Shown here: in pieces, positions 16,476 to 18,114 of the stretch
Layout of the letters: every line of letters starts with the position of its first letter
How positions within the stretch are numbered: position 1 is the first letter of the stretch
From: an uncultured Nocardioides sp.
GTDB lineage: Bacteria; Actinomycetota; Actinomycetes; Propionibacteriales; Nocardioidaceae
Length of the DNA: 64,000 bases
NCBI RefSeq assembly: GCF_947489365.1
Contig: NZ_CANLDB010000001.1
Coordinates: forward strand, 620,001 to 684,000
Direction of reading: 5' to 3'
Program-made: the position numbers and the translations under genes
The notes under the pieces: generated by a model
Databases searched by the model: none
The model's input: only the letters and a program-made list of their open reading frames with translations
What the model was told of the DNA's origin: nothing

Positions 16476-16518
16476 TGCACCGGATCTGATCCACCAGGTG
16501 AGTCAGATCCGGCGTGCA
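16476..16518. terminator. Bidirectional hairpin between the SIP and reverse transcriptase genes
   Basis: Arms TGCACCGGATCTGA and TCAGATCCGGCGTGCA pair over 14 bases with a 2-base bulge, around a 13-base loop. It lies between two converging stop codons, so it can end transcripts from both sides. It shares the GAT/ATC inner arm with hairpins at 4424, 18084 and 26171. Confidence 0.6.
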
Positions 16519-16523
16519 ACGGT

Positions 16524-17855
16524 TCACCGCGACCAGTCCACCGCCTCCCACGCCGCGATGAGACGCGCCCCGCGCGTGCGGTCGTGCTGCGCGACCCAGG
16601 CGATGCGGCCCCGCAGGTGCTCGGCGTACGACGGGTGGTCGTCGCGGTTCTGGCTGGCGGGGCCGTGGCGGGCGCAGTTGTGGAGGATCGCGCGGAGGCG
16701 GTCGACCTCGGCGCGGCTGACGCGCGGGCGGTCGTTGACGACCAGGCCGGTCAGCTGCTGGCGTCCGGCCCGCGGCATGACGCCGGTCTTGCGCGGGTTC
16801 AGGCGGAAGCCCTCGTCGACCACGACCTCCTCGATCGCGTCGAGCAGGCGCGAGGTGCCGCGCCCCCAGCCGCGGTCGCCGGAGAGGGCGAGGTCGTCGG
16901 CGTACCGGGTGTAGCGCCCGCCCCACGACGCGGCGAGCGCGGTGAGGCGGACGTCGAGACGGTACGCCGCGAGGTTCGCCAGCGCTGGGGAGGTGGGCGC
17001 GCCCTGCGGCAGGTGGGGTGCGGCGAGGCGGCGCCCGAGCCGCCAGTGGGCGTCGACCAGGCCGGGGTCGCGCGGCTTCGGGACGGCTCGCCACGCCGAC
17101 AGCGGCAGGACGCTCGTCGTGAGTCCGGCCAGCGCGTGGGCGACGGACTCGGGGTAGCCGGCGGTGCGGAACAGCCCGTACACCCGGCCGACCGTGACGC
17201 TCGCGAAGAACGCCTCGAGGTCGAGGTGCAGGACGACGGCCTGCCCGGCGTGCGGGGCGGCGTACGAGCGCGCCGACCCGCCGGGGCGGAACCCGCGGGC
17301 GGCGTCGTGGGGCGGGATGCCGCCGAGGACCTCGTCCAGCAACCGTCGCTGCATCTCCTTCAGCGTGGCCTTCGGTGCCTCCAGGACGCGGATCGCGCCG
17401 CTCGGGGCGGTGACGTGGCTGACCCGGTAGTGCTGGAGCGCGGGGGTGCTCGTCCGGCGGGCGAGGCGCTTGGGGTCGGCGTACCAGTCGAGCTCGCCGG
17501 CGTTCAGGTCGAGGAAGCGGGCGAGGGCGCCGAGGTCGTCGAGCACCGGGAGGCGCCAGCGGTTGGTGAGCATCCGGGTCGGGCTCACCGGCTGCGTCAC
17601 CGGCGCAGCAGCCGGACGTCGGGCGCGGGCGCGGCCGGCCTTCTGCGCGGCGGGGCAGGTCGTGATGACCGCGGCCAGCTCGCGGGGGCGGTCGTGCGGC
17701 GGGCGCGGGTAGAGCGCGTGCACCTGGGTGGCGAGGGCGGTCAGCCACTGCGGGCGTCGTCCCAGCACCTCACGGCCGCTGGCGGTCAGGCCCTCCGGGG
17801 TCCAGTCGCCGGCGAGGTAGCCCGCGGCGAGCGCCCGCGCGAGGTCGGCCCTCAC
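16524..17855 (-). CDS. Retron-type reverse transcriptase
   Basis: 443 residues from the GTG at 17855 (VRADLARALA); the open frame continues upstream to 18020, but that part is low-complexity and overlaps the predicted ncRNA. Residues 1-90 form an N-terminal extension. The polymerase motifs are LDLEAFFASV at 211-220, HLPQGAPTSPALANL at 281-295 and RYADDLALSG at 317-326 with the catalytic Asp320-Asp321 pair. Retron-specific marks are AAPH at 199-202 (compare NAxxH) and LTGLVVND at 368-375 (compare VTG). No maturase, endonuclease or variable-repeat partner is present, which argues against group II introns and diversity-generating elements. No effector gene is adjacent. It should copy part of the RNA encoded at 17882-18052 into multicopy single-stranded DNA. 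Confidence 0.85.
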   Translation of the reverse strand: MRADLARALAAGYLAGDWTPEGLTASGREVLGRRPQWLTALATQVHALYPRPPHDRPRELAAVITTCPAAQKAGRARARRPAAAPVTQPVSPTRMLTNRWRLPVLDDLGALARFLDLNAGELDWYADPKRLARRTSTPALQHYRVSHVTAPSGAIRVLEAPKATLKEMQRRLLDEVLGGIPPHDAARGFRPGGSARSYAAPHAGQAVVLHLDLEAFFASVTVGRVYGLFRTAGYPESVAHALAGLTTSVLPLSAWRAVPKPRDPGLVDAHWRLGRRLAAPHLPQGAPTSPALANLAAYRLDVRLTALAASWGGRYTRYADDLALSGDRGWGRGTSRLLDAIEEVVVDEGFRLNPRKTGVMPRAGRQQLTGLVVNDRPRVSRAEVDRLRAILHNCARHGPASQNRDDHPSYAEHLRGRIAWVAQHDRTRGARLIAAWEAVDWSR

Positions 17856-17881
17856 GGGGCCGACAGGCGGGGGAGGGCGGG

Positions 17882-18052
17882 GTGCGGCAGCGCTGCTCGA
17901 CCTGTCCCGTCGTGCGCGCGCGGACCTGCAGCGGAGCGCAGCGTCGTGCGCGCGGTGTGGTGCCCGGACGTACCGGTGGACCCCGGGGTAGCCCCGGGGT
18001 AGCTCCCTGATGACGCGCACCAGGGTGCCGTCTCGACCAGACGCTGCCGCAC
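17882..18052 (-). ncRNA. Candidate retron msr-msd RNA
   Basis: On the minus strand GTGCGGCAGCG (18052-18042) and CGCTGCCGCAC (17892-17882) are perfect 11-base inverted repeats, extendable by one G-U pair. They enclose about 149 bases and end 27 bases before the reverse transcriptase start, exactly where retron a1/a2 repeats lie. Inside are a short stem directly after a1, a perfect 9-base hairpin ACCCCGGGG/CCCCGGGGT at 17980-18000, and two 13-base direct repeats of CGTCGTGCGCGCG (17908-17920, 17942-17954) whose GCGCGC cores can pair. The 5' half is probably msr and the 3' half msd. The fold, priming guanosine and DNA product are not established. Confidence 0.65.
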
Positions 18053-18083
18053 GGGGCGCACCCTACGGCCCGGGGGTGAGACG

Positions 18084-18114
18084 GGAGTGTGGTGGATTTG
18101 ATCCACCACACTCC
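18084..18114. repeat. Perfect 14-bp hairpin upstream of the retron RNA
   Basis: Arms GGAGTGTGGTGGAT and ATCCACCACACTCC pair without mismatch around a 3-base loop. It lies in the 543-base gene-free interval between the reverse transcriptase and ABC-F starts, 32 bases outside the a1 repeat. It may insulate the divergent transcripts or act as a protein site. Outer AGTG and inner GAT are shared with the hairpins at 4424 and 26171. Confidence 0.55.

What the first reader, a model, noticed from the sequence alone, without database searches (positions are those of the whole stretch)
16524..18052. Candidate retron: reverse transcriptase plus upstream msr-msd RNA
The RT has YADD, an NAxxH-like AAPH and a VTG-like LTG motif. 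The 171 bases before it are bounded by perfect 11-nt inverted repeats (GTGCGGCAGCG and its complement) ending 27 bases upstream of the start. Inside lie a 9-bp hairpin and two 13-bp direct repeats. This is the a1/a2 geometry of retrons. The RT has a 90-residue N-terminal extension and no neighbouring effector, so this would be a solo actinobacterial retron. What it senses or does is unknown.
Basis: partly seen in the sequence, partly recalled or inferred. Interest (0 to 1): 0.82.

Follow-up and report, generated by a model that had tools for sequence, protein, structure and literature searches.

The report
Solo retron with translated template RNA
In a Nocardioides bacterium, a reverse transcriptase gene sits directly behind a 171-base conserved RNA with the layout of a retron template, without a conserved partner gene, and that RNA carries a reading frame that runs from its first base to the enzyme's start codon, so the cell would likely have to translate the template RNA in order to make the enzyme.

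Summary
The 171-nt element (17882-18052, minus) lies next to the same reverse transcriptase (RT) in 40 of 42 RT-bearing genomes among 215 of the genus (both misses are truncated), in 29 of 30 loci examined of another actinobacterial family, and before RTs on three Burkholderia replicons. Pairs covary strongly. It has the retron parts: a1/a2 stem, conserved G just inside it, 9-bp/3-nt msr hairpin, msd hairpin. No partner gene recurs among 42 loci; an empty site lacks just RNA plus RT. New here: the RNA is also an open reading frame. A GTG or ATG, as a rule at its first base, opens a frame that crosses the element and stops on or near the RT start; RNA and RT stay in register in 39 of 40 genomes, yet the peptide shows no coding-type conservation. 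I infer a retron whose RT synthesis is coupled to translation of its own template. Neither a DNA product nor translation has been shown.

The parts
18060..18065 (-). -10-like hexamer TAGGGT, 7 nt before the first base of the RNA
   Evidence: TAnnnT ends 6-7 nt upstream of the element in 17 of 17 loci; it occurs in 0.2% of comparable places
17882..18052 (-). 171-nt msr-msd-like RNA element (columns 1-171 of alignment A1)
18042..18052 (-). a1 arm, begins with GTG
   Evidence: pairs with 17882-17892; 12 of 12 pairs with double changes and 97.2% of cells paired in A2 (alignment fitted to the model)
17882..17892 (-). a2 arm
18032..18032 (-). predicted priming guanosine (column 21, CGA-G-ACGG)
   Evidence: invariant in 17 of 17; lies just inside the a1/a2 stem as in known retrons; that it primes is inferred
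17980..18000 (-). msr hairpin, 9 bp with a 3-nt loop (CTA)
   Evidence: 7 of 9 pairs invariant in 17 loci, 100% of cells paired; same stem and loop size as the RT-binding hairpins of Eco1 and Eco3
17914..17953 (-). msd hairpin
   Evidence: columns 100-139
17902..17960 (+). predicted single-stranded DNA product, about 50-60 nt; ends uncertain
   Evidence: inferred from Eco1 geometry; folds as a hairpin, though no better than shuffles
17852..18052 (-). uORF of 66 codons: GTG at the first RNA base, through the whole RNA, stop TGA overlapping the RT start (GTGA)
16524..17855 (-). retron-type reverse transcriptase, 443 aa (P0001)
17571..17855 (-). N-terminal helical domain of the RT (about residues 1-95, five helices)
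   Evidence: W18, P53, D55, R58, L60 invariant in 90 of 90 aligned proteins

Best explanation
This is most likely a stand-alone retron, a reverse transcriptase preceded by a conserved RNA with the retron msr-msd layout, and the same RNA carries an open reading frame that ends on the RT start codon, so making the enzyme is predicted to be coupled to translating the template. Shown by sequence: a -10-like box 6-7 nt before the RNA (17 of 17 loci of the window's kind); a GTG or ATG as the first codon of the a1 arm; an unbroken frame across the element that stops on the RT start; an RT mostly without a Shine-Dalgarno site; paired structure with compensating changes. Inferred: transcription starts at the first base of a1, so the GTG is leaderless; ribosomes read through msr-msd, stop at NUGA and restart on the RT. 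When the transcript is not being read, a1 and a2 close (which hides the start codon), the RT binds the 9-bp msr hairpin, primes from the 2'-OH of the conserved G and copies the msd hairpin into a branched DNA of about 50-60 nt, with host RNase H removing template. Folding or RT binding would shut off further RT synthesis, a feedback that sets enzyme against template. No effector gene travels with the cassette; I take the helical N-terminal domain, or a protein encoded elsewhere, as the effector (not resolved).
For: Retron part: RNA beside RT in 40 of 42 RT-bearing genomes of the genus and no RNA without RT among 215 (the model's own training loci are partly among them); 14 of 14 family RTs in a class sample, 0 of 9 genomes with other RTs; 29 of 30 loci of another family, none of them in the model. 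Covariation: 11 of 52, 46 of 54 and 41 of 54 pairs with double changes, 0 of 500 shuffles reach these. [GA]AG[ACG] at the priming site in 16 of 18 elements. RT fold nearest retron RTs. Coupling part: spacer length is 2 mod 3 in 39 of 40 genomes, with 11 different in-register lengths; 0 of 33 elements have a stop in the uORF frame, against 10 and 6 in the other frames; codon 2 of the RT is AGG or AGA in 14 of 16 although AGG is 4.3% of later Arg codons; in the other family a uORF ends between 3 nt before and 8 nt into the RT start in 25 of 29 loci, 16 of them exact 4-nt NUGA overlaps, against 11.6% and 7.8% when the upstream bases are shuffled; the first a1/a2 pair is A-U in 13 and G-C in 12 of 30 rows, which keeps ATG or GTG. 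Precedent in an actinobacterium: expression of PPE2 depends on a uORF with an AUGA overlap (PMC11260477, passages).
Against: No DNA product, transcript or peptide is shown. Two Nocardioides copies, both from metagenome assemblies, keep RNA and RT but break the uORF frame (L003 10-nt and L007 1-nt deletion), and G586 is out of register with a damaged RT. Of 15 distant elements only 8 show the overlap on a plausible RT start; the three Burkholderia copies do not. In the other family 4 of 29 were negative by script; one of them, L163, is the same genome as L057, which one search scored positive, so start-codon choice matters. Lack of a Shine-Dalgarno site is weak evidence: 4 of 8 nearby window genes (starts guessed) lack a 4-nt match too. 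The predicted DNA hairpin is no more stable than shuffles. Sequences are related, and A2 and A6 are fitted to the model, so the shuffle controls flatter the structure.
Confidence: 0.78

Rival explanations
1. An ordinary solo retron in which the open frame over the RNA is a by-product of GC-rich sequence and has no role; the RT is translated on its own.
For: GC-rich DNA has few stops; two copies break the frame and keep RNA and RT; Burkholderia copies lack a coupled uORF; half of the nearby genes lack a Shine-Dalgarno match as well; retron Eco1 of BL21 also has a 51-codon frame from the first ATG of its msr, which is broken in a 65% identical relative.
Against: Register kept in 39 of 40 genomes with 11 spacer lengths; the other two frames do carry stops; stop-start overlap in two families with different element lengths, well above the shuffled rate.
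Confidence: 0.18
2. The uORF encodes a real small protein (a partner or antitoxin) and the RNA structure is secondary.
For: A 56-76 codon frame is present in two families, with a recurring G-A/V-T-P-G stretch.
Against: No excess of third-position change: mean entropy 0.347, 0.291, 0.292 for codon positions 1-3, permutation p 0.63; synonymous fraction 0.30, lower than in the other frames (0.38, 0.33). The C-terminal tail varies freely in length and sequence. The GATPG stretch is the msr hairpin itself.
Confidence: 0.05
3. The RNA is only a cis-acting leader that controls the RT gene and is not copied.
For: Structured leaders with uORFs that control the next gene are known in actinobacteria.
Against: The element has the full retron order (a1, G, msr hairpins, msd hairpin, a2) and the RT is of retron type by profile and fold.
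Confidence: 0.06
4. A DRT-type system in which direct repeats in the RNA template a repetitive DNA.
For: Two 13-nt direct repeats in the window.
Against: The repeat is not exact in relatives; the Drt2 model scores 31 bits against a cut-off of 390; the fold list ranks retron RTs above DRT2 and DRT9.
Confidence: 0.02

Closest known systems
Retron-Eco1 (Ec86) and Retron-Eco3 (Ec73)
   Same: msr-msd order, a1/a2 stem, priming G at its inner end, 8-9 bp/3-nt msr hairpin (PMC6868368, section 6 read); RT fold for Ec86
   Different: Eco1 has an effector gene next to it. A frame over its msr-msd ends 20 nt before the first in-frame ATG of the RT (RefSeq annotates a later start) and is broken in a 65% identical relative. 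The RT here has a 95-residue N-terminal domain.
Myxobacterial retrons Mxa2 (Mx65) and Mxa1 (Mx162)
   Same: GAGC and CAGC priming contexts are near GAGA, GAGC and AAGC here; one source names a close relative of this RT 'from retron Mx65' (P0056); no effector gene is known for them (recalled)
   Different: Here presence is patchy, 42 of 215 genomes of the genus.
PADLOC RT_other / RT_outgroup ('retron')
   Same: By far the best profiles for this RT and for the distant relatives L018, L019, L021
   Different: These are protein models. PADLOC also holds msr-msd covariance models (PMC9252829, passages) that I could not search, so a model of this RNA there is not excluded. Rfam 15 has no match.
uPPE2-PPE2 leader of Mycobacterium tuberculosis
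   Same: Structured RNA leader, uORF with NUGA stop-start overlap, downstream gene without Shine-Dalgarno motif (PMC11260477, passages)
   Different: There a B12 riboswitch, here a template for reverse transcription; here the uORF appears leaderless.

Membership tests
Retron (RT plus msr-msd) | Retron-type RT with region X (NAxxH) and region Y (VTG-like) motifs | tested here: met
   AAPH, LTG, YADD in the window; H202 invariant, A199 and G370 at 90% or more in 90 proteins, that is, variants of both motifs, as PMC4244168 section 13 allows. Retron profiles best; retron RTs top the fold list
Retron (RT plus msr-msd) | Structured RNA directly upstream with complementary a1/a2 ends | tested here: met
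Retron (RT plus msr-msd) | Conserved guanosine at the inner end of the a1/a2 stem | tested here: met
   G21 invariant in 17 of 17; [GA]AG[ACG] in 16 of 18 (L052 and L057 do not fit). That it primes is inferred
Retron (RT plus msr-msd) | Multicopy single-stranded DNA joined to RNA by a 2'-5' bond | not testable with these tools
   needs nucleic acid from cells
Tripartite retron types I-XIII | Associated or fused effector of the type | tested here: not met
   No recurring neighbour within about 6 kb in 42 loci (one genome counted twice) apart from a syntenic block and scattered clusters of 3-8 loci. In the window, 8 neighbours gave PADLOC matches only for an ABC-F-like protein (best mad3, 126 bits, by its ATPase parts), an oxidoreductase and a response regulator. 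An effector role of the N-terminal domain is not excluded
DRT systems | Membership in a DRT RT family (Drt2, Drt3a models) | tested here: not met
   Drt2 31 bits (cut-off 390), Drt3a 13 bits (cut-off 200)
Group II intron RT | Maturase RT profile | tested here: not met
   TIGR04416 34 bits, cut-off 300
NUGA-coupled uORF pair | uORF stop overlapping the next start | tested here: met
   NUGA in the window and 26 others of 32 loci; 16 of 29 exact in another family
NUGA-coupled uORF pair | Synthesis of the second protein depends on translation of the uORF | not testable with these tools
   needs reporters

The most novel reading that the evidence does not exclude
The template RNA of this retron family is a ribosome-occupied message as long as the cell translates, and turns into a folded template when translation stalls; the retron thus reads translation itself, so that a phage or stress that stops ribosomes releases the RNA to fold, the RT makes a burst of DNA, and the RT's own N-terminal domain carries out or relays the response without a separate effector gene.
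Probability: 0.2. Interest if true: 0.92.

Novelty: new variant of a known kind. Interest (0 to 1): 0.77.

Why it matters
Retron RNAs are treated as non-coding. Here one and the same RNA appears to be template and message, with the start codon built into the a1 stem and swapping A-U for G-C so that pairing and start codon are both kept. That gives a simple, testable way in which a retron could set its enzyme level or sense translation. It also defines a widespread actinobacterial retron RNA family without an Rfam match, and effector-free retrons pose an open question: what does a retron do alone?

Full report
WHAT IS THERE. On the minus strand, a 443-aa RT gene (16524-17855, GTG start) follows a 171-nt element (17882-18052) bounded by a perfect 11-nt inverted pair. 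The window lies in Nocardioides by inference: same-genus genomes of the genome search include contigs whose lengths equal those of named Nocardioides records (L025 and L010).

THE RNA IS REAL AND TIED TO THE RT. A scan of one genome per species returned 17 loci, best segments 66-78% identical (16 Nocardioides, 1 Leekyejoonella); the 16 with DNA upstream of the RT all carry the element, 17-44 nt before the RT (the 17th, L016, begins inside the RT). Alignment A1 of 17 elements (window included) gives a 12-bp a1/a2 stem, a 5-bp inner stem, three msr hairpins and an msd hairpin; 98.5% of cells pair, 11 of 52 pairs have double changes, 0 of 500 shuffles match. A covariance model from A1 found the element before RTs of only 42-52% identity. 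In the genus, 49 of 215 genomes have any RT match: 42 of this family (62% identity or more) and 7 with weaker matches to other RTs. The RNA is in 40, each time beside a family RT; the two family RTs without it are G599 (contig ends inside the RT) and G623 (fragments). Several of these 40 are the model's own training loci. In the class sample 23 of 394 genomes had an RT match; the 14 of this family all have the RNA, the 9 others do not. An RNA-only search of 388 class genomes with stricter filters found 7, all with the RT. In family f7 66 of 201 genomes match the RT alignment (the lowest are fragments or other RTs); of the 30 best loci, 29 have the RNA (L171, whose RT has an internal stop, does not), with 41 of 54 pairs doubly changed. 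A2 (18 rows, 15 distant, two of the other three being training loci) and A6 are fitted to the model, which favours it.

SOLO. Over 42 loci (L010 and L111 are one genome) ORFs within about 6 kb were clustered. Beyond ORFs lying over the RT, the main shared neighbours are those of one chromosomal site in 11 Nocardioides loci, behind a dnaK-grpE-dnaJ-hspR-like block (Hsp70 and MerR by Pfam; the other names follow from order); the window is elsewhere. Five more clusters reach 3-8 loci at scattered distances; the largest looks like an ABC transporter ATPase, the others are unidentified. In G017, which has no RT, the two flanks of that site lie together; what L008 has in addition is about 1.58 kb, that is RNA plus RT. 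Beside the window's copy are a siderophore-interacting protein, an ABC-F-like protein and redox genes.

THE READING FRAME. The spacer between RNA and RT varies from 17 to 74 nt but is 2 mod 3 in 39 of 40 genus genomes; the exception, G586, has a damaged RT whose match starts at residue 13. The reason is a frame that starts with the GTG at the first base of a1, covers the 57 codons of the element and a variable tail, and ends with TGA on the RT start (GTGA/ATGA). Of 32 loci parsed (two repeat others: L069 as L004, L083 as L006), 26 end exactly so, and L073, misparsed there, does so on recheck; L001 and L029 end in TGATG, L013 stops 5 nt before the start; L003 and L007 (metagenome assemblies) have deletions that break the frame. 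Codon 2 of the RT is AGG/AGA in 14 of 16 although AGG is 4.3% of later Arg codons. In 33 distinct elements the uORF frame has no stop, the other frames have stops in 10 and 6; that set was limited to elements of exactly 171 nt, those also to a GTG or ATG start, so L003 and L007 are not in it. The RT has a Shine-Dalgarno match of 4 nt or more in 1 of 17 (L013); but 4 of 8 nearby window genes lack one too, so this weighs little. A TAnnnT box ends 6-7 nt before the GTG in 17 of 17 against 0.2% background, so the message is probably leaderless; in the 15 distant loci the box is found in some and not in others.

OUTSIDE THE GENUS. Of 15 distant elements a frame from near the RNA's 5' end stops with a 4-nt overlap on a plausible RT start in 8: L053, L051, L055, L037 (from column 6), L021, L057 (from column -7), L018, L056. 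L054, L036, L052, L058 and L019 do not show it, and in L020 and L023 it meets an internal ATG. In f7, 25 of 29 by script: 16 exact 4-nt overlaps, 5 of 8 nt (one genus), 4 within 2 nt; 22 of the 25 start at column 1; negatives L159, L154, L163, L158. With the upstream bases shuffled, 11.6% pass the same test and 7.8% give an exact 4-nt overlap (25 loci x 400, real RT start kept). Genomes G356 and G210 stand in both sets; G210 scored positive (L057) and negative (L163). The first a1/a2 pair is A-U in 13 and G-C in 12 of 30 rows: pairing and start codon are kept together, though related species share the state.

PEPTIDE OR PASSAGE? Third codon positions are not more variable (0.347, 0.291, 0.292; permutation p 0.63) and synonymous change is not enriched (0.30 against 0.38 and 0.33). 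So selection appears to act on RNA structure and on keeping the frame open, not on the peptide.

CONTROL. Retron Eco1 in BL21(DE3) also begins its msr with ATG and has a 51-codon frame, ending 20 nt before the first in-frame ATG of the RT; in a 65% identical relative it is broken after 23 codons. So this is not a general rule, on n = 2.

MECHANISM. See Best explanation. Shown: structure, conservation, register, overlap, lack of a recurring partner. Inferred: leaderless start, stop-restart on the RT (precedent PMC11260477, passages), closing of a1/a2 as the off state, priming at G21, product of about 50-60 nt, function.

DISTRIBUTION. Patchy (42 of 215 in the genus), at more than one site, with a copy in Leekyejoonella at 66% and copies on Burkholderia and Tsukamurella replicons at about 49%: consistent with an accessory element that moves, as defence genes do, but defence is not tested.

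Noticed in passing
window 18084-18114: A perfect 14-bp inverted repeat with a 3-nt loop lies where the -35 region and beyond would be, between the retron promoter and the divergent ABC-F-like gene; it could be an operator.
   Followed up: no
window 16476-16517: Inverted repeat just after the RT stop, between convergent genes; looks like a two-way terminator without a T run (read by eye).
   Followed up: no
L008, L001, L011 and other loci, about -5000 to -200 before the RT: In 11 Nocardioides loci the cassette sits behind a dnaK/hspR-like heat-shock block.
   Followed up: partly
L008:9358-9624: Small protein of 89 aa ending in CGHRNMSGRTCTRERGHAAKSHRYS, with relatives in 26 of 58 genomes; function unknown, independent of the RT.
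   Followed up: partly
L178:1501-1656: Retron Eco1 of E. coli BL21 has a 51-codon frame from the first ATG of its msr, and its annotated effector gene stops inside the msr.
   Followed up: partly
L150, L152: RNA elements of 195 nt, 33 nt longer than L149 (162 nt); the extra length is a multiple of three and the frame stays open.
   Followed up: no
P0020: A source names this protein from Alloalcanivorax gelatiniphagus, yet it is 75% identical to the window's RT; the label or the assembly may be wrong.
   Followed up: no
RT residues 49-60: A stretch of the N-terminal domain (Y49, P53, D55, R56, R58, E59, L60) is invariant or nearly so in 90 proteins; a good target for mutation.
   Followed up: partly
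alignment A2, msd hairpin tip: The tip GCUCCGC recurs in most actinobacterial elements (GCGUUGC in Burkholderia), so the DNA product would carry a conserved loop.
   Followed up: no
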